Positions 4,084-16,705 of a DNA stretch of 20,792 nt are shown one piece after another. The notes under the pieces were generated by a model. The model saw nothing but the letters and a program-made list of their open reading frames with translations, searched no databases and was not told the DNA's origin. Source of the DNA: a virus; the IMG/VR virus record IMGVR_UViG_3300048834_000297, positions 1 through 20,792 of that record. One strand, given 5' to 3'. The translations under genes and the position numbers were made by a program. Every line of letters begins with the position of its first letter. The first letter of the stretch is position 1.

Positions 4084-4445
4084 GCGACAGCCCCCATGAT
4101 TGAGCCGCCGAGTTCCCACGCGACGCGGCAGGACTCGTTGCCGCAGTACCGCAGCGGACCGTCGTGGCCTTCGGTGTCGTGGGCGCGGATGACGAGGCGG
4201 ATCAGGTCGTCCAGGTGTGGTGCGTTGCGCCCGACGTAGGGGCAGTCGCTGTCGGAGTGTTCGCAGTCACCCTCGTCATGCCAGCCGGTCCAGCGCAGAG
4301 CCTCCTCGCACTGGTCGGTGTCGTCCTTGTAGTGGAAATCTTCCAGGACCGTCTCGATGATCTCCGCGACCATCTCCGGCGATGCCTCGCCCGTGAACTC
4401 AACGGTCGGGTGCGCGTACTTCCAGGTGATGGTGAAGTCGCTCAT
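4080..4445 (-). CDS. Acidic Cys/His-rich early protein, unknown function
   Basis: A 121-residue acidic protein (begins MSDFTITWKYAHPTVEFTG). After a beta strand region, a helix (MVAEIIETVLEDFHY) leads into a Cys/His-rich segment (DCEHSDSDCPYVGR; later RYCGNESCRVAWE). Two CxxxxC-type clusters and nearby His may bind zinc. It is not a family I can name. The start at 4445 (MSDF) gives an ATGA overlap with the upstream gene and is preferred over an alternative four codons earlier. Confidence 0.7.
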   Translation of the reverse strand: MSDFTITWKYAHPTVEFTGEASPEMVAEIIETVLEDFHYKDDTDQCEEALRWTGWHDEGDCEHSDSDCPYVGRNAPHLDDLIRLVIRAHDTEGHDGPLRYCGNESCRVAWELGGSIMGAVA

Positions 4446-6080: not shown

Positions 6081-6211
6081 CACGACCACCTGCCCGACAG
6101 GAACGCCCGCTCAGAGCGCGAGGCGGGACGTAGACCCCGGTAGGCGTCGGCCCCAAGGATCAGGTCGGCGCAACGATTGCCGAGCAGGACAAGGGCGGCT
6201 AGGTACGTCAT
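6080..6211 (-). CDS. Small hydrophobic/basic protein (43 aa)
   Basis: A 43-residue frame (begins MTYLAALVLLGNRCADLILG) fills the gap between the HNH gene and the 60-aa gene. It starts in an ATGA overlap with the HNH stop and ends in a TGATG overlap with the next ATG. The junction pattern on both sides matches the rest of the operon, which supports it as a real gene. The first 20 residues are hydrophobic and could form a marginal membrane helix; the remainder is Arg/Ser-rich. Function is unknown. Confidence 0.6.
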   Translation of the reverse strand: MTYLAALVLLGNRCADLILGADAYRGLRPASRSERAFLSGRWS

Positions 6212-6543
6212 GCGGCACCTTCAATCTCGTCGCTGAACGTGAGCCAGCCGACGAACGCAAGGACAGGAGTGGTGGGGGCGTCCTCAACCGAGCGCAGGAG
6301 GTAGCCGGTTTCGCGGGCCTCGTCACGGTGGGACTCGATATATCCGTGGCATCCGGTAGTGCCGGTGCCGCACAAGGTCAAGAGGTTCGCCATGCCGTTG
6401 ATGCGCGGGTCGTTCGTGCCACCCATCTGGCGGGGCTTGCGATGGTGGATCGAGTACGGGATGTAGGTGACGTTCTGACCGCAGCAAACGCAGGCCTCGT
6501 TGTCGCGGGCCAGGACGGCGGCGCGCACCTTGCGGGGGATCAC
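6208..6543 (-). CDS. HNH endonuclease
   Basis: A 111-residue protein. A basic N-terminus (MIPRKVRAAVLARDNEACVCCG) leads into the HNH fold: CVCC, then YSIHHRKPRQMGG with the catalytic His pair, NLLTLC, and GCHGYIESH. The paired Cys motifs and terminal H-xx-H bind zinc or metal as in phage HNH families. It lies beside the recombination genes rather than the terminase, so a role in recombination or DNA processing fits better than packaging. No group I intron or intein surrounds it. Confidence 0.85.
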   Translation of the reverse strand: MIPRKVRAAVLARDNEACVCCGQNVTYIPYSIHHRKPRQMGGTNDPRINGMANLLTLCGTGTTGCHGYIESHRDEARETGYLLRSVEDAPTTPVLAFVGWLTFSDEIEGAA

Positions 6544-6899: not shown

Positions 6900-7431
6900 C
6901 GGTGGCCTCCGATGCCGGGATGATCTGGACCGTGACGCGGCCCTTCTCCTTGTGGCAGTACTCATCCGGATCGATGCCGTGCTCGCGCAACTTCGTGGTC
7001 CGCCACGACGGTCGGGCGCACGCCACGAGCGCATCGCGCAGCGCCCACGTCATCGCGTTCGGTTCGCACAGTTCCCCGGTGGACTCATCCACCACCGGCC
7101 CCGAGGTGACCTTGCGGACGAGATCGGCGGTGAGGCCGTCGTTGTCCCACTTCGTGCGGTCAGCACCGAACCGGCGTTCAGCGACCCACTCATTCGACAG
7201 CGCGATCCGATTCCCTGCCGTCCGTGGCCATGCCCGTGCGGCAGCGTCCTCGAGGGCGCGTTCGATGGTGGCCAGTTGCTGCCGTGCCGTGCGTGCATCA
7301 CGGAGCAGGGTGATGAGGGCGATGTCGTCGCCGTCCACCTGTCCGATGAGGCGGTCGATGTCGTCGTGCAGCGCGGCGACGGCTTCGACAGCCGGGGTGA
7401 ACGTCTCGGTCTGGAACGTCTGGGCGCTCAT
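6892..7431 (-). CDS. Conserved actinophage protein, unknown function (179 aa)
   Basis: The N-terminal 60 residues are helical (VEAVAALHDDIDRLIGQVDG). The middle and end match a familiar actinophage family: VAERRFGADRTKWDNDGLTA, ARPSWRTTKLREHGIDPDEY, then GRVTVQI. The family is usually encoded between recombination and replication genes and has no known activity. The motif HGIDPDEYC is its clearest signature. No membrane segments or catalytic motifs are obvious. Confidence 0.75.
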   Translation of the reverse strand: MSAQTFQTETFTPAVEAVAALHDDIDRLIGQVDGDDIALITLLRDARTARQQLATIERALEDAAARAWPRTAGNRIALSNEWVAERRFGADRTKWDNDGLTADLVRKVTSGPVVDESTGELCEPNAMTWALRDALVACARPSWRTTKLREHGIDPDEYCHKEKGRVTVQIIPASEATDD

Positions 7432-7946
7432 GCGGCAGCCGCCTTGACCTCGATACCGCGTGCGCGGATCGCGTCGGCCTCATCGAACCGGGCCAAAGCC
7501 ACGGCCTGGGCGTGGAGGGACAGCAGCAGATCAACGTCGTTGATGTCGTCAAGCTGACGGATGGCGGCGTCGTAGTCGGCGGTGGAGCGGTTGTGCGACA
7601 GGTCTTCCTTCGACCACAGATCTAGCGCGACACCGAAGCGCATGGCGGCGTTGCGGAGCGCGTCCGAGACGAGTTGCTTGGCGCTGTTGGACCCATCCCC
7701 TACGCCTACGCGGGTGATGCCGCAGACGGTGAGCCTGATCCACAGGTTCCCGCTCGCGTCCAGGGCGGGCAGGCCGTTGGCGTCAGTGGCGAAGGGTTCC
7801 CACGTCCACTCGGGATCGACCTGGATCAGCCGGTCGGTCACGGCGGCGTGGCCCACGTAGTCGAGCATCATCCCGGCCTTGGGCAGTTTGCCGATGACGG
7901 CGGGCGGGAACGGTTCGCGTAGCGCCTTCGCCTGCTCCGGGGTCAT
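7428..7946 (-). CDS. ERF/Rad52-like single-strand annealing protein
   Basis: A 172-residue protein. Residues about 5-115 have the pattern of the Rad52/ERF annealing superfamily: LREPFPPAVIGKLPKAGMML, YVGHAAVTDRLIQVDPEWTW, a beta strand (GNLWIRLTVCGITR), VGVGDGS, then AKQLVSDALRNAAMRFGVAL. Such proteins anneal complementary ssDNA during phage recombination and end repair. A short C-terminal helical segment follows. The neighbours (HNH, helical accessory protein) fit a recombination module. The exact subfamily was not resolved. Confidence 0.75.
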   Translation of the reverse strand: MTPEQAKALREPFPPAVIGKLPKAGMMLDYVGHAAVTDRLIQVDPEWTWEPFATDANGLPALDASGNLWIRLTVCGITRVGVGDGSNSAKQLVSDALRNAAMRFGVALDLWSKEDLSHNRSTADYDAAIRQLDDINDVDLLLSLHAQAVALARFDEADAIRARGIEVKAAAA

Positions 7947-8473: not shown

Positions 8474-8979
8474 GCGGCACCGCTCGCGGCGTCAGAGTCG
8501 GCAGTCGTGACGGCGCCCGCGCGGACAGCCGCGTCGATGGAGCCGTGCGCTTCGAGTAGGTCCGTCAGCCACGGGCCGACGTGTTCGACCATCAGGTCGG
8601 TGGAGCGCACGACCTTCTCGCGGTTAGCGATGCGCTCCTCAACGATGCGGGACACGTCGTTGGCGTCCAGGGCCTGGGCTTCGTTGGTGATGGCGGGACC
8701 ATTTGGTCCCATCGCGCGCACAGTTTCGGACGCCTCAACAAGTCGGTTGACGTGACGCTGACTGAGGTTCCACCTGTCGCGGCAGTACGCGTCGAACGTC
8801 GCGTAGCCCTCGCGGTACAGGCGGGCATCGCGGATGCGGGCCAGGGACTCCCCGACCTCCACGAACGTCGCCAGGCCGCGCTCGATGACGCACTCAGCGG
8901 CGGTCAGGTCGCCACGCTCGACGGAGGTCAGGCCGTCCACGATCTCGCCGGTCGTGGTGTCCACGAGTTCGGCGCTCAT
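8470..8979 (-). CDS. ParB/DUF3102-like DNA-binding protein
   Basis: A 169-residue protein. The segment VIERGLATFVEVGESLARIR and DARLYREGYATFDAYCRDRW, with an HTH-like LSQRHVNRLVEASE, is a well-known module of phage and plasmid proteins (often annotated as ParB-like or DUF3102, or as the N-terminus of phage methyltransferases). Here there is no methyltransferase domain. The C-terminus is helical and ends in an acidic/Ala tail. It probably binds DNA; regulation or segregation are possible roles. It is coupled to the excisionase gene by ATGA. Confidence 0.75.
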   Translation of the reverse strand: MSAELVDTTTGEIVDGLTSVERGDLTAAECVIERGLATFVEVGESLARIRDARLYREGYATFDAYCRDRWNLSQRHVNRLVEASETVRAMGPNGPAITNEAQALDANDVSRIVEERIANREKVVRSTDLMVEHVGPWLTDLLEAHGSIDAAVRAGAVTTADSDAASGAA

Positions 8980-9149
8980 GCCGCTTCACCCAGCAGGCGG
9001 TCGATCTCGGCCTGCGAGATGCGGAAGTGGCCGGTGGGCAGCAGTACGGCCTTGATGTGGCCCGCTTCGATCCAGCGCCGGATGGTTACCGGGTGGACGG
9101 CCAGCAGTGTCGCCGCCTCCGTCGTGGTGTGCAGGGTCTTGGTCGCCAT
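8976..9149 (-). CDS. xis: Excisionase-like helix-turn-helix protein
   Basis: A 57-residue protein of the HTH_17/MerR-like excisionase family. It begins MATKTLHTTTEAATLL; the motif is AATLLAVHPVTIRRWIEAGH, then the wing (LLPTGHFRIS) and a final helix (AEIDRLLGEAA). It is the first gene of the leftward early operon and diverges from the repressor, so it is probably lytic-specific. It may direct the integrase to excision and also act as a Cro-like regulator. A TAGGTT hexamer 7 bases before the ATG suggests a leaderless mRNA. Name assigned by domain and context. Confidence 0.8.
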   Translation of the reverse strand: MATKTLHTTTEAATLLAVHPVTIRRWIEAGHIKAVLLPTGHFRISQAEIDRLLGEAA

Positions 9150-9261
9150 GTGGAGGAACCTAACACTATGACGAACTACCGATACAACGACCTACTAAGG
9201 CAACACGGTCACGGTTGGGTAACAAGGTTTCATTAGTACGTGATTGGGGTACCTTGTCGTC
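9150..9261. promoter_or_regulatory. Divergent promoter/operator region of the genetic switch
   Basis: This 112-base gap separates the leftward excisionase gene from the rightward repressor gene and is visibly more AT-rich than its surroundings. TAnnnT hexamers stand close to both start codons: TAGGTT (minus strand, 9162-9157) and TACCTT (plus strand, 9250-9255). An inverted repeat ACAAGGT/ACCTTGT (9222-9228, 9251-9257) overlaps the candidate repressor promoter. A 16-base-spaced direct repeat ACGAMCTAC occurs at 9171 and 9187. Promoter positions are inferred; -35 boxes are weak. Confidence 0.5.
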
Positions 9262-9597
9262 ATGAGCACACAACCTAAGCACGGCTGGCTTCCCCAGGGC
9301 ACGTTCATCGAACGGCTCTTCCTAGTCCGCGCACACATGGGGTGGAATCGCAAGGAAGCGGCTCTAGCGAGCGGCATTCCCTACGCGACATGGCGCACGT
9401 GGGAGGTCGGCGGGTCGATGCCCTCAGACCTCGATGCCACGTGCCGAAAGATTGCCCACGCGAGCGGGTGCGACTACGTATGGCTGATGACGGGCCACGT
9501 GTCGGAACGACCAGGGCCGGATGGCTTGTCAGCCTCTAGATGTATTCAGCCATTCGGCCCGACTCCCGCGCTAGAACTGGTAACGCTCGCAGCCTAA
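9262..9597 (+). CDS. Helix-turn-helix phage repressor (candidate immunity repressor)
   Basis: A 111-residue protein. Residues about 16-78 are an XRE-type HTH: GWNRKEAALASGIPYATWRT, WEVGGSMPSDLDATCRKIAH, then CDYVWLMTG. The domain is the size of a small immunity repressor. The C-terminal 30 residues are extended and end in ...LAA, like an ssrA tag, which would mark the viral form for ClpXP. It is followed after 33 bases by the integrase. The start at 9262 is chosen over a TTG at 9244; there is no strong Shine-Dalgarno, consistent with leaderless translation. Confidence 0.78.
   Translation: MSTQPKHGWLPQGTFIERLFLVRAHMGWNRKEAALASGIPYATWRTWEVGGSMPSDLDATCRKIAHASGCDYVWLMTGHVSERPGPDGLSASRCIQPFGPTPALELVTLAA
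9514..9560. repeat. 13-bp inverted repeat in repressor 3' end (candidate attP)
   Basis: GGGCCGGATGGCT (9514-9526) and AGCCATTCGGCCC (9548-9560) are inverted copies with one mismatch, separated by 21 bases. The near-central TCTAGA (9535-9540) is itself palindromic. It is the most obvious dyad next to the integrase gene and lies where integration-dependent phages place attP. The arms are farther apart than a usual tyrosine-recombinase core, so the attP call is tentative. Confidence 0.4.
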
Positions 9598-9630
9598 GGC
9601 TCCCGATGAACTGTGCCGAGGGAGCATCCC

Positions 9631-10503
9631 ATGACACGCACCGGGGAGGCGGTCGTAGACCGCCATGTCGAATACATGCACATGCGGGGACTCGCAGAGG
9701 GAACCGTACAGATGCGCCGTAGCGTCCTGTCACGGCTCTCTGAACACTTAGGCGGGCCGGTCTTGTACGCCACCCGCGATCAGCTCGTGGACTACTTGCA
9801 GATCCGTATGGGGCAAGTCGTCCCCGCGACACGACGGAATGACGTGACGCACCTGAGGGCGTTTTACGGGTGGTGCCTTGACGAGCGGCTGCTGATGCAC
9901 TCCCCCGCCGAACGGCTCCCGACACCCAGGGCCACGCACTACCTCCCCCGGCCCATGCCCGAGGGCCGGTTCGCGGAAGCCTTGCGCAACGCCGATCCGG
10001 CGACATGCGCGATCTTGTCCCTCGCCGGATTCGCTGGACTCAGGGCGTGTGAGATCGCTCTGCTGGACTGGTCCGAGATCAACCTTGACGAGCGGGTACT
10101 GAGAGTGGCCAGGGGTAAGGGTGGCCGGTCACGCGTCGTGTTCATCTCCGACCCGCTCGCAGACTCGCTGGCAGCCCTGCCGCACAGGATCGGCCCCGTC
10201 ATCCCACCGCTTCGGGCACACGGCTACTGCACCGCGAACTCCATCACCAAGCGCGCCTCCCGCTACCTCGCTGAGTGCGGGATACCTGACCGGCTCCACA
10301 CGTTGCGGCACCGGTTCGCCACGGCCGCCCTGCAAGGGACCGGCGACCTACGCGCCGTGTCGGAAGCGATGGGGCACGTCTCGATGAACACCACGGCCAT
10401 CTACGCCAGGGCCAGCGTGTCGAGCGTTGAGCAGGCCATGGTCGCGGCTGCGACGATCGGCGCGGTGGGCGGTTTGGCTGAGGTCGTCGCAGGAATCGCC
10501 TAA
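9631..10503 (+). CDS. int: Tyrosine integrase
   Basis: A 290-residue tyrosine recombinase. An N-terminal SAM-like core-binding domain (about 5-90) precedes the catalytic domain: GLRACEIA (Arg138), RGKGGRSR (Lys163), HTLRHRF (His223, Arg226), GHVSM (His249) and AIYA (nucleophile Tyr258). It mediates integration and, with the excisionase-like protein, excision. The size is XerC-like and shows no extra arm-binding domain. ATG 9631 is preferred over a GTG at 9613 because AGGGAG lies just upstream. The C-terminus is Ala/Gly/Val-rich and ends in AGIA, possibly a weak degron. Confidence 0.9.
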   Translation: MTRTGEAVVDRHVEYMHMRGLAEGTVQMRRSVLSRLSEHLGGPVLYATRDQLVDYLQIRMGQVVPATRRNDVTHLRAFYGWCLDERLLMHSPAERLPTPRATHYLPRPMPEGRFAEALRNADPATCAILSLAGFAGLRACEIALLDWSEINLDERVLRVARGKGGRSRVVFISDPLADSLAALPHRIGPVIPPLRAHGYCTANSITKRASRYLAECGIPDRLHTLRHRFATAALQGTGDLRAVSEAMGHVSMNTTAIYARASVSSVEQAMVAAATIGAVGGLAEVVAGIA

Positions 10504-10524
10504 CTCGCGCTAGGGTCCGGCGTC

Positions 10525-10839
10525 ATGAGCGACGTACTCCGAGCCGAGTTGGCAGGCGCCGCCGCACAAGGCGGCACGATCATCTACCAGGATGAGACGC
10601 AGGCCGTGATCGAGTACCGGCAGCGGACCGGCGTGATCGCCGGGATGGTCGGCACGTTTGCATCCCTGTTCCTCGCGGTGCTGATCGGGGCTGCGGTTGG
10701 TGCGGCATCGCCCGAAGTCGGATTGATCGTCGTGGTCGTGCTGGCGATCGCGGGCCTGGTGTTCACCTGGCGCACCAGTGTCCGCAGGTTCCGAGTGTGG
10801 GTCGATGAGGCTGGGGCGGTTCAGGTGCATAAGGCCTAA
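10525..10839 (+). CDS. Membrane protein downstream of integrase
   Basis: A 104-residue protein. Residues about 35-60 (RTGVIAGMVGTFASLFLAVL) and 64-80 (GLIVVVVLAIAGLVFTW) are membrane helices; the N-terminal 34 residues and C-terminal tail are soluble. It follows the integrase after 21 bases and ends before a strong terminator, so it could be expressed from the lysogen. A role in superinfection exclusion is plausible but unproven, and no family is recognised. An independent promoter was not identified. Confidence 0.72.
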   Translation: MSDVLRAELAGAAAQGGTIIYQDETQAVIEYRQRTGVIAGMVGTFASLFLAVLIGAAVGAASPEVGLIVVVVLAIAGLVFTWRTSVRRFRVWVDEAGAVQVHKA

Positions 10840-10852
10840 CCAACGACGAATA

Positions 10853-10887
10853 GCCCCGCCCCCGACCCGAAGGTCGAGAGGCGGGGC
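10853..10887. terminator. Strong hairpin terminator between convergent operons
   Basis: GCCCCGCC (10853-10860) pairs perfectly with GGCGGGGC (10880-10887), and an inner stem CGACC-CGAA-GGTCG (10863-10876) extends it. It lies between the end of the rightward membrane gene and the end of the leftward endolysin. There is no clear poly-U tract on either side, as is common in high-GC actinobacteria, so a bidirectional terminator is inferred. Confidence 0.75.
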
Positions 10888-10907
10888 CTCGTCCGTTCTG
10901 AGGGGTG

Positions 10908-11681
10908 CTACAGGCCGAGCCTGCGCCAGGTGTGCGCGCCGACCTTGCCTGACACCTTGATGCCGTTGGACCACTGGAAGATCGACACCTTCGCCGCGGT
11001 GATCGGTCCGAAGTGGCCGGTCTGGCGCACCCCGAGCCGCTTCTGGATACGACGAACGGCTGCACGGTCGAATACGTCAGCGCGGCCGTCATGCTGCGTC
11101 CTCGACGGCTTGCGCCAGAACACGTGCCCCTTGGGCAATGGGAACGAGCTCTTTGGTGTCTGCGCAGCGATCTGCTTGGTGATGTGTCCGCGCACCTTGG
11201 TCAGGTTGTTGCGGATGTCAACCTTGCGTGGACCGGCGTAGTCGGTGTGGCGGATGACGCGGCCCGCATCCCAGCCGTACAGGCGGCACAACGCCGCAAC
11301 GCCCTTCACCAGCGACAGGTACTGCGCCCCAGTGATTGGCGCGTTACCCAGGTGCGACACCTCGATGCCAATCAGGAACTCGTTGCCGCTGTCCTTCGGG
11401 ATGACCAGGCCGCGAGAGTTCCACCGCCCGTAGCCCGCATGGTTAGCCCGGCCCGTGGTGATGACGTGCCACGTGCCATCGGGCGCCAGGTACAGCTGCG
11501 ACAGCGGGCCAGGGATCCCGGCGCGACCGCGGGTGACGACGCCAAGGTCGCCGGGAGCCTTGCCGGCGGTGTGATGCAGCAGGATGCCGCGCGGTGGGCC
11601 GAACGCGAACGGACGTCCAGGCACCGGCTCGTCGACAACCTTCAGCCCTGCCCGACGCAGTGCGCTGCCCCAGGTGCTCAC
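10908..11681 (-). CDS. Endolysin: N-acetylmuramoyl-L-alanine amidase
   Basis: A 257-residue lysin with two domains. Residues about 25-165 are an amidase-2/PGRP fold: RGILLHHTAG with metal ligand His36, a substrate region (NHAGYGRW), IGIEVSH, RHTDYAGPRKVDI with His145 and Asp155 as the other zinc ligands. Residues about 205-257 are a PG-binding-1 domain (AAVRRIQKRLG, GHFGPITAAKV, GKVGAHTWRRLGL). It cleaves the amide bond between MurNAc and the stem peptide. The GTG start at 11681 overlaps the holin stop in GTGA. The longer open frame upstream is not coding. Confidence 0.88.
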   Translation of the reverse strand: MSTWGSALRRAGLKVVDEPVPGRPFAFGPPRGILLHHTAGKAPGDLGVVTRGRAGIPGPLSQLYLAPDGTWHVITTGRANHAGYGRWNSRGLVIPKDSGNEFLIGIEVSHLGNAPITGAQYLSLVKGVAALCRLYGWDAGRVIRHTDYAGPRKVDIRNNLTKVRGHITKQIAAQTPKSSFPLPKGHVFWRKPSRTQHDGRADVFDRAAVRRIQKRLGVRQTGHFGPITAAKVSIFQWSNGIKVSGKVGAHTWRRLGL

Positions 11682-12387: not shown

Positions 12388-12690
12388 CTAGGGGAGCGGG
12401 TGCGCCTCGTCGAGGCGGCCCGTCAGGATGTCGACCTTGTCGCTGAGCGCCCCGACCTCTTCACGCACCACGTCACGTATCTCGTCTCTGGCCTTGCGGA
12501 TCGTGAAACGCAGCAGCCATCCGGCGGGGACCGCAACTGTGGCGCAGATGCCCAGGACTACCGCGACGAACTGCGCGTTGCGCAGCGTCCCCTCGGATAC
12601 GGCCAGGACCGCTCCGGTGACGACGGGCAGCGCGGTCAGTCCAGCCCCGGTGATCGCGGCCAGGAGTGTGGCTTCCCCCCGCTGGCTCAT
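12388..12690 (-). CDS. Small membrane protein, holin-like, in lysis cassette
   Basis: A 100-residue protein. Residues about 7-30 (TLLAAITGAGLTALPVVTGA) and 40-60 (FVAVVLGICATVAVPAGWLL) form two membrane helices, followed by a charged amphipathic helix (RKARDEIRDVVREEVGALSD) resembling a coiled coil. This topology matches the DUF2746-like accessory lysis proteins found near actinophage endolysins. The ATG overlaps the stop of the distal tail gene. Two small membrane proteins in one cassette may cooperate in hole formation. Confidence 0.72.
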   Translation of the reverse strand: MSQRGEATLLAAITGAGLTALPVVTGAVLAVSEGTLRNAQFVAVVLGICATVAVPAGWLLRFTIRKARDEIRDVVREEVGALSDKVDILTGRLDEAHPLP

Positions 12691-14513
12691 TCCGACAACT
12701 CCACATTCATCGTGAGCGAATCAACCGACATCGACACCGAGTAGCCCTGGATGTGGCCGAACGCGGACGTGCCGCCCGTCACGCCGGATGGCAGGCCGGT
12801 GATCTCGCAAAATGTGCCCAGCGACTTGTTCAGCGGAACCCACCGCGAGGACGCGAAGTTCTCGCTGGTGAGGACATCAACGGTTACGCCCCGCAGTCCG
12901 GGTGGTTGCGCGACGGCGCGGGCCAACACGCGGTCGGCGTAGTCCTCCAGGAGCGATTGGGAACCGGCAACGATGCCCTGCCTGGACTCGCCCACGATGC
13001 CGTCTGACGCGACGGAGGTGGCGTCCTCGCGGTACACCGAACCCGCCGTGGTGCCCTCCACGGTGAGGACGTTGAAGAATCCGTCGGCGTCGGACGCATA
13101 CTCCAGGCCGTCCAGCAGATCCCCCGCAGCGGTGAGCGTCAGATCAACCGGCGCCGAGTAGGCGTCGTAGCCGTAGTAGCGGAGGTCGTTGTTCTGATTG
13201 GCGTGGAACACCCCGCCCTCAGCCTCAGCGATCTCATCGAAGCACGCCAGCAGATCCTTACCTGCTGTGACCTGACCGCCCACCGTGAACCCGGAGGTCA
13301 CATCTGCCGCCGTGAACGACACTGAACTGTCCACATACTCCAGCAGGCGCTCCACGCGCTGCGTGACGGTTTGCCCGCTGCGCCCGTTGATGCCCGCGTT
13401 GTAGATGGCGCTCAGCTCGGATGAGGTCACCGCGTAGGACGGGTAGACCGCCACCCCTGCGAACGATGCGGAGCAGCCGTAGGTGGGTTGGTCGGTTGAC
13501 CAGTTCCACACCCCGCCGATGGTGAGGCGGCGGTCCGTGGAGCCGATAGTCCTCGTAGTGCCGGTGGAGGATGTGTAAGTGGCGCCGTCCACATACATGA
13601 ACAGCCGGGTGCCCGTGGTGTCGGTGCCCATCGCCACGAAATGCCAAGCGTCATCCACCATGCCGACACCCGTGGCCGGGGAAGTGGAGCGGGTCAGGGT
13701 CATCGTGTTTGACGAGTCGTTCCTGACTGTCAGGGTTAGCGCCCCCGCGCCGCTCAGGAACAGTTGCATGTACCCGTTGCCCGAGGACTGCCGGTCCATG
13801 TTCAGTAGGTAGCCCGCCGACGTAGCGCGGAACCAGAACATCACCGTGCCGTTAGCGCCGGGGTTGAACGTGACCGGCGACACCAGGACCGGCCCGACAA
13901 GGTTCGTTGGGTCGTCGGGGACGATCTTTATCGACCCCTGCATGAACGGCGGTGCGTCCTGCTCGAACTCGTGACTGCCCGCCTTGCCACCCAGGAACCC
14001 GCCACGGATCTCGATGGGGTCCGCAGACTCATCCCGCCACGCCGCCCACTCATCACCACGGGTGGCGTTCAGGTCGGACATCGGCCAGCACGCCGACCCG
14101 GTGTTCGCCAGCGCCACCAGCGTCGCTTCCTCAATCGCCATCGACTGAATGCGGGTCTGCGACAGCGACTTGAGAATGTCCACACACTCAACGACCGCTA
14201 CGACCTGGCTACGGTTGAGCTGGACGGTAGTTGAGTCAACTACCCCCGTGAACACGGTTTGCGTGTCCACCTTGATCCGCACCGCAACTCGGTCCAGCAC
14301 GGTCGGGTAGTAGGGGCTGTAAATGTTGCCAGGGCTGAACCGTCCATCCGAGTTGTCGAGCGTGAACGAAGCCGTCCCCGTCGCTGCTGGGGAGAAGGCC
14401 CGCGAGCGCCCACGGCGGAACTCGATGGACGAACCCTTGACCAGCACATAGTCGGACACGTCTACCCAGGAGCCGCCCAGGTAGAACTCAACGGTGTAGT
14501 CGGGGGCTGCCAT
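12687..14513 (-). CDS. Distal/minor tail protein with LamG-like insert
   Basis: A 608-residue protein directly downstream of the tape measure. Residues 1-150 have the beta-rich start typical of actinophage minor tail proteins (SSIEFRRGRSRAFSPAATGT, TLDNSDGRFSP). Residues about 190-375 resemble a LamG/concanavalin-like jelly roll (NGTVMFWFRA, DDAWHFVAMG, TGTRLFMYVDG, RLTIGGVWNW). Residues 380-608 are again beta-rich (RVERLLEYVD, GGVFHANQNNDLRYYGYDAY). It probably forms the tail tip and, through the jelly roll, may bind host surface glycans. The ATG at 14513 overlaps the tape-measure stop as TGATG. Confidence 0.82.
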   Translation of the reverse strand: MAAPDYTVEFYLGGSWVDVSDYVLVKGSSIEFRRGRSRAFSPAATGTASFTLDNSDGRFSPGNIYSPYYPTVLDRVAVRIKVDTQTVFTGVVDSTTVQLNRSQVVAVVECVDILKSLSQTRIQSMAIEEATLVALANTGSACWPMSDLNATRGDEWAAWRDESADPIEIRGGFLGGKAGSHEFEQDAPPFMQGSIKIVPDDPTNLVGPVLVSPVTFNPGANGTVMFWFRATSAGYLLNMDRQSSGNGYMQLFLSGAGALTLTVRNDSSNTMTLTRSTSPATGVGMVDDAWHFVAMGTDTTGTRLFMYVDGATYTSSTGTTRTIGSTDRRLTIGGVWNWSTDQPTYGCSASFAGVAVYPSYAVTSSELSAIYNAGINGRSGQTVTQRVERLLEYVDSSVSFTAADVTSGFTVGGQVTAGKDLLACFDEIAEAEGGVFHANQNNDLRYYGYDAYSAPVDLTLTAAGDLLDGLEYASDADGFFNVLTVEGTTAGSVYREDATSVASDGIVGESRQGIVAGSQSLLEDYADRVLARAVAQPPGLRGVTVDVLTSENFASSRWVPLNKSLGTFCEITGLPSGVTGGTSAFGHIQGYSVSMSVDSLTMNVELSE

Positions 14514-16705
14514 CACGCCATCCGGATCGAGCCGCGACGGATTGCCCGACCAACAGCGTCCTCGACCCAGCGGGCCACGTCATCCTTGCTCCCGATGACG
14601 CCGGAGACGTTGACCACGACCGTGGGACCACCGCCTGACGACACTCCGATGCGCGGGATGATGGTGCCGCTCCGATCCGGGACGAACAGTTCCGCGCGCT
14701 TCTCGCCCACGATGTACGCCTGGCCAGCGCGGACGGGGCCACCGCTAGCGCGCCCGGGGATGCGTGCGCCGAACTCCTGCTGCTCGGTCCGAGCGTTCGG
14801 GTTGATCACGACATTTGGAAGGTTGCTACTCGCCCAGGCGGAGAAGGATGCGATCTTGCGACGCGCTTCCTTGTCATCGAACTTGGCCTTTGTGGGGACG
14901 ACCTTTGGGATCAGCCCGTACTTGTCGGCCAGCCGCTGCGCCTTGTCGCCCGTGAGCCCGGCGGCGCGAGCGGCACGAATGAACGCGTCGCGTCCCTTGC
15001 TGAGCTGGACGTTGGCGTCCTTCTGCGACCCGCTGACCTCGAACGCCGCGACTGCCGCGTCGCGCGCAGACTCGGCGATCCCACGCAGGGCGTCCTTGTT
15101 CGCGCGCCCCTTCTCAGTGTTGCCATCCAAGGTGCGACCGTTGTCCTTGACCGACTCAGTGAACGAGTCGACGGATGCCTGGAAGCGGTCCTGCGCCGCA
15201 TCGACCGTCAAGTAGCCGCCGCCGAGCTGGTCGAGCTGGGCGCGGAACGCCTTGACCTTGTCCTCAGCAGTGGCCATCGAGTCGTTCAGGACGTCCTGCG
15301 CCTGGGCAGTCTTCTCGGTGCCGTCCTTGGCCTTGACGTTCGAGTTGTAGAACTCGACCAGGCCGTCGGACGCGCGACCCACGCCCTGGCTCAGGTCGAT
15401 CCCGGTGGTCTCAGCCAGGCGCTCAGCCTCGCGAGTCGTGATGCCCAGTCGGGAGGCTGTGAGCTCGAAGACGCTGTCGGTCTTCCGGCCGGTCTCCTCG
15501 ATCTGTCGCTGGTACTCGGTGACCTGGTCGTCGATGTGCTTGAAGCCGTTGGTGAAGCGGAAGCCGAACGACTCCGCGCCGTCAGACAGGGTGTCCCACA
15601 CGCCGCTGCCGTTGTTGAGGTCCTCCTGCTTCTGGCGCAGCTCGTTGAACTTCTCCACCGTGTCGCCCAGAGCCTGACGACTGCCCGAGGATGCGAATCC
15701 CTCGATCGCCTCGTCGAGTTCGGAGCGCATCTCGGCCGCTGAGTTGGACGTGGCGATGGCTGCGGCACCGATGGCCGCCAGTGCGGTCGCAGTGGCGGCG
15801 AATCGGGCCTGACCCTTGTCGAGGTCCTTGATGAAGCCGACCATGTCCTGTGCCATGTCGGCTATGCGTGGACCGGCCACAACTGCTGCGCCCCCCAGGG
15901 CGACGACCTGCACGACCGTCTTCTGGGTCGCGGGCTCCATCTCGGTGAACACACCGAGCAGGTCCGTGAACGTGCCCACCGCCGTCTTTGCGTAGGGCAA
16001 CAGGAACTGCCCCAGCTGCGCCTGAGCGTCCTGCCACTCCGCCGAGAGAGTGCGCTGCGAGTTCGCCAGCCCGTCAGCGGTGCGGGCGAAGTCACCCTGG
16101 GCGTCGGTGGTCTGCTTGTAGATCGCAGCCTGAGCCGCCAGCACCTTGTTCTGCGGGGTGAGGGCGTCCTTCGTGGTCTTGATGAGGCCGAGCGCCATCG
16201 CCTCTTGCTTGAGCGTGGCGTCGTCAAGCAGCACGCCGTATGCCCTGATCGGCTCGGCTTCACCGCGCAGCGCGGCACCGATGGCCTCGATGGCCTGCTC
16301 GGGCGAGGTGTTGTTGAACGAGGCCAGGTCTGAGGCCAGAGTCGTGAACTCGGTCGAAAAGCCAGCGAGCTCGTCACCAGTCAGCCCGGCCGACTTGCCG
16401 AAAGTGGCGAACGTCGCGGCGGCGCTCATGGCCACGGTCTTCGACTGACCGATGGACTTGGCCGCCTGGTCCCCGAACTCCTCCACCTTGCCGGCGGAGT
16501 CCCCGAAGATCACGCCTACCTTGGACTGCGTCTCCTCGAGGTCCGACGCCGCTGTGATGGCCTGCTTGGCGAACACGGCGATGCCGGCAGCAGCCACCCC
16601 GGCGGCGATGTTGCCGACTGAGGCGAAGGAGTCGCCGACCTTGTCGAGGTTCTTCGACGCCTTGTCGACGGCGACGATGTTGACCTTCAGGTTCGACGTG
16701 GCCAT
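14513..16705 (-). CDS. Tape measure protein
   Basis: A 730-residue, mostly helical protein following the tail assembly chaperones. It starts with a typical N-terminus (SNLKVNIVAVDKASKNLDKV) and a hydrophobic segment (GNIAAGVAAAGIAVFAKQAI). A TP901-type region (LEETQSKVGVIFG, AGLTGDELAGF, NNTSPEQAIEAIGAALRGEA) follows, then long amphipathic repeats and a Gly-rich C-terminus (TVVVNVSGVIGSKDDVARWV). It sets tail length; at about 1.5 A per residue, roughly 110 nm is expected. No peptidase or lysozyme domain is visible within it. Confidence 0.92.
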   Translation of the reverse strand: MATSNLKVNIVAVDKASKNLDKVGDSFASVGNIAAGVAAAGIAVFAKQAITAASDLEETQSKVGVIFGDSAGKVEEFGDQAAKSIGQSKTVAMSAAATFATFGKSAGLTGDELAGFSTEFTTLASDLASFNNTSPEQAIEAIGAALRGEAEPIRAYGVLLDDATLKQEAMALGLIKTTKDALTPQNKVLAAQAAIYKQTTDAQGDFARTADGLANSQRTLSAEWQDAQAQLGQFLLPYAKTAVGTFTDLLGVFTEMEPATQKTVVQVVALGGAAVVAGPRIADMAQDMVGFIKDLDKGQARFAATATALAAIGAAAIATSNSAAEMRSELDEAIEGFASSGSRQALGDTVEKFNELRQKQEDLNNGSGVWDTLSDGAESFGFRFTNGFKHIDDQVTEYQRQIEETGRKTDSVFELTASRLGITTREAERLAETTGIDLSQGVGRASDGLVEFYNSNVKAKDGTEKTAQAQDVLNDSMATAEDKVKAFRAQLDQLGGGYLTVDAAQDRFQASVDSFTESVKDNGRTLDGNTEKGRANKDALRGIAESARDAAVAAFEVSGSQKDANVQLSKGRDAFIRAARAAGLTGDKAQRLADKYGLIPKVVPTKAKFDDKEARRKIASFSAWASSNLPNVVINPNARTEQQEFGARIPGRASGGPVRAGQAYIVGEKRAELFVPDRSGTIIPRIGVSSGGGPTVVVNVSGVIGSKDDVARWVEDAVGRAIRRGSIRMA

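What the first reader, a model, noticed from the sequence alone, without database searches (positions are those of the whole stretch)
9262..10503. Possible integration-dependent immunity switch (repressor-attP-integrase)
The small HTH repressor is followed by the integrase with a 33-base gap, and the excisionase-like gene diverges from it. The repressor ends in ...VTLAA, like an ssrA tag. In mycobacteriophages BPs and Brujita, attP lies inside the repressor gene and the viral form carries a C-terminal degron, so only integration yields a stable repressor. The same layout, gene order and C-terminus are seen here. No other intergenic space next to int is large enough for attP.
Basis: partly seen in the sequence, partly recalled or inferred. 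Interest (0 to 1): 0.8.

Follow-up and report, generated by a model that had tools for sequence, protein, structure and literature searches.

The report
Phage repressor–integrase immunity switch, Brujita-like
A fragment of a phage of Gram-positive, high-GC (actinobacterial) bacteria carries a repressor and an integrase laid out like a known genetic switch in which inserting into the host chromosome trims a self-destruct tag off the repressor; it is probably another member of that known group, but the insertion site that would prove it could not be found.

Summary
The window has a 111-aa HTH repressor (9262-9597, +) ending ...VTLAA, a 33-nt gap, a tyrosine integrase (9631-10503, +) and a divergent excisionase/Cro-like gene (8976-9149, -). 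The repressor is homologous to repressors of known or predicted integration-dependent immunity phages (Brujita/Babsiella, Bowser/Schnabeltier; 45-52% identity over aa 1-88 only). The BPs-type repressor (Angel) is far more distant (25%) and ends -DKAS, so this is Brujita-like, not BPs-like. The integrase is arm-less.

Relatives in host genomes support the mechanism but also limit it. In six prophages a host tRNA lies antisense over or beside the repressor's end. In one rebuilt lysogen (M. canariasense) integration swaps ...SVSFAA for ...RSSTD. In two others the stop codon lies inside the core, so the repressor does not change. Layout alone is not proof.

In the window, attP is not located. The repressor tail carries no tRNA 3' end (Brujita control rings in 34/41 genomes; the window tail is at chance level in about 1,800 genome look-ups). 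A 20-nt match to the start of a host ettA gene is an intriguing but chance-level lead. Verdict: probably a new member of a known kind; the switch itself is unproven.

The parts
9262..9597 (+). Immunity repressor (111 aa, HTH), viral form ending ...VTLAA; homologue of Brujita gp34 / Babsiella gp34 / Bowser gp40
9496..9597 (+). Repressor tail after the conserved WLMTG motif: diverges from all relatives, loses the GC3 coding signature (18/33 vs about 0.8 elsewhere, p about 0.001), ends in the ssrA-like LAA; expected place of attP (inferred)
   Evidence: no tRNA core:
9598..9630 (+). 33-nt gap between repressor and integrase, with a purine-rich GAGGGAG that may serve as int ribosome-binding site (by eye); alternative place for attP
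9631..10503 (+). Tyrosine integrase (290 aa), arm-less: SAM-like core-binding domain starts at aa 10; R138, K163, H223-R226, H249, Y258 (approximate numbering from motif positions); C-terminus ...VVAGIA, not an AA tag
8976..9149 (-). Divergent excisionase/Cro-like HTH_17 protein (57 aa), homologue of Babsiella gp35 and Bowser gp41
9150..9261 (.). Divergent promoter/operator region; inverted 7-mers ACAAGGT (9222-9228) / ACCTTGT (9251-9257) are a weak operator candidate
   Evidence: 11-mer found 4x in the window with up to 1 mismatch, 1.7 expected
9537..9556 (-). Weak attP-core candidate: 20 nt identical to the first codons of ettA in genome G723 (CGAATGGCTGAATACATCTA, ATG start, M A E Y I Y)
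   Evidence: E 0.003 per genome, chance level over the genomes searched
10525..10839 (+). Small membrane protein after int, in the position of Babsiella gp32

Best explanation
A Brujita-type integration-dependent immunity cassette in its viral form. Shown: repressor homology, gene order, arm-less integrase, -LAA end, and the same switch visible by sequence in at least one related lysogen. Inferred: repressor and integrase are made from one promoter; the viral repressor is degraded through its LAA end (ClpXP or similar); the integrase recombines a short non-tRNA attP core, lying in the last ~100 nt of the repressor gene (9496-9597), with a host attB; this replaces the repressor's last residues by host-coded ones (a nearby stop), giving a stable repressor of roughly 85-100 aa that shuts the divergent early promoter. 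Low or unstable integrase sets how often lysogeny occurs.
For: Homology to repressors of phages with known or predicted integration-dependent immunity, confined to the domain before the tail. Same cassette in Babsiella and Brujita. Arm-less integrase, as expected where attP must fit in a coding sequence (PMC9262239). Related prophages have a host tRNA antisense over or just after the repressor end (L014 Thr, L015 Asn, L017 Arg, L018 Lys, L021 Met, L027 Thr), with the same core next to an integrase in four of these genomes (L015, L017, L018, L021). Joining the two ends of the M. canariasense prophage turns ...VRSSTD into ...SVSFAA. In all five AA-ending viral forms with a recognisable tRNA core (Brujita, Babsiella, GMA5, L040, joined L018) the core lies inside the repressor gene before the AA. 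AA ends: 11 of 23 viral forms, 0 of 12 prophage forms (Fisher p 0.005; not corrected for kinship). Non-tRNA attP inside a repressor is known in M. abscessus MabC, MabN, MabO and MabH prophages (PMC8092301).
Against: attB not found (at chance level). No tRNA core, although most of the group uses one. Of four confidently joined relatives, two (L017, L021) keep the same repressor before and after integration, so the layout can exist without the switch. AA ends are common in this phage (about 4 of 33 other genes). The integrase lacks an AA tag.
Confidence: 0.62

Rival explanations
1. Same cassette, but attP lies at or after the repressor stop (for example in the 33-nt gap or the start of int). Integration does not change the repressor; immunity is ordinary, and LAA only sets repressor turnover or is incidental.
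For: Tersicoccus (L017) and Microcella (L021) relatives: the core contains the stop codon and the repressor is the same in both states. AA ends have a base rate of about 12% here.
Against: Those two relatives lack an AA end; AA-ending relatives with a visible core have it upstream of the stop. Only 33 nt of gap are available. The GC3 loss covers the repressor tail.
Confidence: 0.22
2. The cassette is decayed or uses its recombinase for something other than chromosomal integration; the repressor-integrase proximity is inherited but the att function is lost, as has been suggested for one of Bowser's integrases.
For: No attB found; attB also never found for Bowser and Schnabeltier (PMC4982277, PMC5559632).
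Against: Integrase catalytic residues and the repressor domain are intact; the host is unknown and genomes were sampled thinly, so failure to find attB is weak evidence.
Confidence: 0.08
3. A specific form of the best explanation: attB is the 5' end of host ettA. The core (9537-9556) restores ettA codons 1-6, the phage supplies a GGGAG ribosome-binding site 9 nt before the ATG, and the host supplies a TGA that ends the repressor as ...SASRCIQPFE (99 aa), removing GPTPALELVTLAA.
For: 20-nt exact match; gene confirmed as EttA; integration over a host gene's RBS and start is published for attB-12/attB-13, used by MabC and MabN prophages with this immunity type (PMC8092301).
Against: E 0.003 per genome, about what chance gives over the genomes searched; 2 of 27 such hits fall on a gene start anyway; a comparable recurrent match lies mid-gene in aconitase, where integration would destroy the gene; the tetranucleotide profile does not single out that genome.
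Confidence: 0.08

Closest known systems
Brujita / Babsiella (mycobacteriophage Cluster I) integration-dependent immunity
   Same: Homologous repressor (47% identity in alignment A1), arm-less integrase, divergent excise/Cro-like gene, gene order; Babsiella also has a membrane protein after int
   Different: Their attP core is a tRNA 3' end inside the repressor; the window has none. Their integrases end in -AA; the window's ends in -GIA.
   Same: Layout and proposed logic
   Different: Repressor only 25% identical (E 0.001); C-terminus -DKAS instead of -LAA; attB in a tRNA-Arg (PMC9262239)
Gordonia phages Bowser / Schnabeltier (Cluster DB), predicted integration-dependent immunity
   Same: Among the closest annotated repressors (46-51%), AA-tagged, and, like the window, no recognisable tRNA core or attB
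   Different: Longer repressor tails; about 0.5 kb between repressor and int; integrases end in -AA
M. abscessus MabC / MabN / MabO prophages (e.g. prophiGD53-3, MabN)
   Same: attP in the repressor with non-tRNA attB and short cores; prophiGD53-3 integrase about 35% identical to the window's; integrases without AA tag
   Different: Repressors without ssrA-like tags; different host

Membership tests
Integration-dependent immunity systems (Broussard et al. 2013) | Repressor and integrase adjacent and co-directional, divergent from an excise/Cro-like gene | tested here: met
Integration-dependent immunity systems (Broussard et al. 2013) | Repressor homologous to a known member's repressor | tested here: met
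   (Brujita, Babsiella, Bowser); only marginally to BPs-group Angel
Integration-dependent immunity systems (Broussard et al. 2013) | Arm-less tyrosine integrase | tested here: met
   290 aa, core-binding domain from aa 10, best fits XerA/XerC/XerD-type models
Integration-dependent immunity systems (Broussard et al. 2013) | ssrA-like C-terminus on the viral repressor | tested here: met
   VTLAA by sequence; degradation itself not testable; AA base rate about 12% in this phage
Integration-dependent immunity systems (Broussard et al. 2013) | attP within the repressor gene | tested here: inconclusive
   No attB found in about 1,800 genome look-ups
Integration-dependent immunity systems (Broussard et al. 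2013) | attB/attP core derived from a tRNA 3' end (typical, not universal: MabC, MabN, MabO and MabH differ) | tested here: not met
   (19 bits vs 41-57 bits in Brujita, Babsiella, GMA5, L040), control
Integration-dependent immunity systems (Broussard et al. 2013) | AA-type tag on the integrase (typical, not universal) | tested here: not met
   ...VVAGIA
Integration-dependent immunity systems (Broussard et al. 2013) | Truncated prophage repressor stable and immune; full-length form not | not testable with these tools
   needs lysogens or expression

The most novel reading that the evidence does not exclude
An integration-dependent immunity switch whose attB is the start codon of the conserved translation-factor gene ettA: integration would at once give ettA a phage ribosome-binding site and promoter and give the repressor a host-encoded stop that removes its LAA tag, so that immunity and host ettA expression become coupled.
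Probability: 0.08. Interest if true: 0.55.

Novelty: new member of a known kind. Interest (0 to 1): 0.3.

Why it matters
It extends a known but uncommon switch (integration as the trigger of immunity) to an uncultivated actinobacterial phage with a very divergent integrase (at most about 38% identity to anything found) and no tRNA core. The relatives collected here show something useful: the repressor-attP-integrase layout occurs both with and without a change in the repressor on integration, so annotating the switch from layout alone will overcall it.

Tried and rejected
tRNA-derived core in or near the cassette: rejected in the repressor tail and int start (control). Aconitase (acnA) match at 9568-9590, seen in several genomes: mid-gene, biologically implausible as attB, explained by chance plus gene conservation. 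ettA start match: kept only as a lead, since 2 of 27 chance-level hits fall on a gene start. Fecal 'Bacteriophage sp.' records MT835831/MT837334 with ettA at one end looked like prophage borders but have 75% GC, no integrase, and look like bacterial chromosome. Imperfect inverted repeats as integrase core sites: none above shuffled sequence. Region after int (10480-10930): hits cluster on a GC-rich transmembrane stretch, not an att site. Host inference by tetranucleotides: no clear answer. Exact 20-mers of the tail in viral contigs: only the twin contig. The joined pairs L024/L091 (integrase on the wrong strand) and L019/L103 (no integrase found) were not relied on as examples, though their ends are included in the census.

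Full report
What is there. The window (an IMG/VR record of 20,792 bases) is a fragment of a siphovirus-like phage: head-tail connector, tail tube, tape measure, other tail genes and endolysin run on the minus strand, then the immunity cassette on the plus strand, then early genes including a single-strand annealing protein on the minus strand. A second contig, IMGVR_UViG_3300048588_000123, is 100% identical over 16.9 kb.

What the genes are. The repressor matches PHROG 2328 (E 1.5e-19) and, at 45-52% identity, repressors of Gordonia phages Bowser and Schnabeltier, Mycobacterium phages Babsiella, QueenHazel and Xula, and Arthrobacter phages Popper and Elesar, and Brujita. The listed alignments stop near residue 88. 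The remaining tail shares nothing convincing with any relative and has lost the GC3 coding signature (18/33 vs 60/78 in the domain and 0.81 in int; p about 0.001), as expected if DNA sequence rather than protein is under selection there; this is suggestive only. Similarity to the BPs-type repressor (Angel gp33) is marginal (25%, E 0.001), and Angel ends -DKAS. The integrase has the catalytic R, K, HxxR, H and Y motifs. With 290 aa and a core-binding domain from aa 10 it has no room for an arm-binding domain. It is very divergent: best known phage relatives about 35%, best genome match 38%.

What relatives do. One scan of genome contigs and one of viral contigs with a repressor alignment gave 11 and 34 loci. 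Viral-type loci have repressor then integrase. Prophage-type loci have the repressor at one border and no integrase after it. In L014, L015, L017, L018, L021 and L027 a host tRNA gene lies antisense over or just after the repressor's 3' end, and in four of these genomes (L015, L017, L018, L021) the same core is found beside an integrase. Joining the ends: L018 (Mycolicibacterium canariasense) ends ...KVRSSTD as prophage and ...LASVSFAA as virus, the textbook switch; L015 changes from ...QQPFG to a longer ...PAVSGF; L017 (Tersicoccus) and L021 (Microcella) do not change because the stop codon lies in the core. Thus the layout does not by itself imply the switch. The C-terminus is informative: 11 of 23 viral forms end in AA against 0 of 12 prophage forms (p 0.005, not corrected for relatedness), and every AA-ending viral form with a recognisable core has that core upstream of its stop. 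The window, ending TLAA, belongs to that class.

Where is attP? A library of 87 actinobacterial tRNAs finds the core at 41-57 bits in Brujita, Babsiella, GMA5 and L040, and only 19 bits in the window tail. As control, Brujita's tail rings in 34 of 41 genomes of the order of M. canariasense. The window tail gave 8 hits in 397, 6 in 396, 3 in 299, 2 in 380 and 2 in 348 genomes at thresholds where about 8, 4, 3, 0.8 and 0.7 are expected (some genomes recur between calls). So there is no tRNA core, and no attB in the sample. This does not exclude integration-dependent immunity: M. abscessus MabC, MabN, MabO and MabH prophages use non-tRNA attB sites, with cores of typically 3-25 bp, some over a host gene's ribosome-binding site and start codon (PMC8092301), and no attB was found for Bowser or Schnabeltier (PMC4982277, PMC5559632).

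A lead. One chance-level hit deserves recording: 9537-9556 (minus strand) is identical to the beginning of ettA (CGA plus the first 17 nt of the gene) in genome G723 (EttA by NCBIfam). If that were attB, the repressor would end ...SASRCIQPFE with a stop just after the core, losing VTLAA, and the phage would supply GGGAG 9 nt before the ettA ATG. It is what a MabC-like site would look like, but the statistics do not support it: about this many 20-nt matches are expected, 2 of 27 such hits fall on gene starts, and a recurrent match of similar quality lies mid-gene in aconitase. Tetranucleotide profiles do not favour this genome as host.

Conclusion. The most likely reading is a Brujita-type integration-dependent immunity cassette in viral configuration, with a non-tRNA attP in the repressor tail (confidence about 0.6). 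The steps shown are homology, order, an intact junction, the LAA end, and a related lysogen that switches by sequence. The steps inferred are attP position, degradation, and truncation on integration. It is a new member of a known kind, with the switch itself unproven.

Noticed in passing
L017 about 4286-4323; L021 about 4252-4297: Relatives in Tersicoccus and Microcella keep the repressor/tRNA-core/integrase layout but the repressor stop codon lies inside the core, so integration leaves the repressor unchanged.
   Followed up: partly
L014 655-1260: In Mycobacterium sp. NS-7484 the prophage repressor frame reads on through the antisense tRNA-Thr for about 200 codons in all, an extended rather than truncated form (or a decayed one).
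   Followed up: no
window 3899 / L002 1-34: The twin contig IMGVR_UViG_3300048588_000123 is 100% identical over 16.9 kb but its first 34 bases differ from the window left of 3899; assembly end or a real junction.
   Followed up: no
L005 2989-3432 and 5614-5859: Arthrobacter phage Popper has the window's repressor homologue annotated as 'Cro protein' plus a second repressor/integrase pair; the annotation of gp41 as Cro is probably wrong.
   Followed up: no
L019 4318-5816; L148 1501-2525; L197 10399-14642: ettA lies near a tRNA-Arg(TCT) in several actinobacterial genomes (Tersicoccus, G723, and apparently Arthrobacter), and a family member in Arthrobacter sp. Leaf141 ends about 1.5 kb from ettA.
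   Followed up: partly
MT835831.1, MT837334.1 (L189, L190): Fecal 'Bacteriophage sp.' records (75% GC, ettA at one end, no integrase) look like bacterial chromosome rather than phage.
   Followed up: partly
window 7428-7946: Single-strand annealing protein (phrog_3290, E 7.6e-53) in the early region.
   Followed up: no
window 12687-14516: 609-aa tail-region protein with a concanavalin/laminin-G-like domain (PF13385, E 8e-11), possibly host binding.
   Followed up: no
window 6208-6543: 111-aa protein with a weak match (E 5e-6, aa 9-66) to the start of the DpdF defence model in PADLOC.
   Followed up: no
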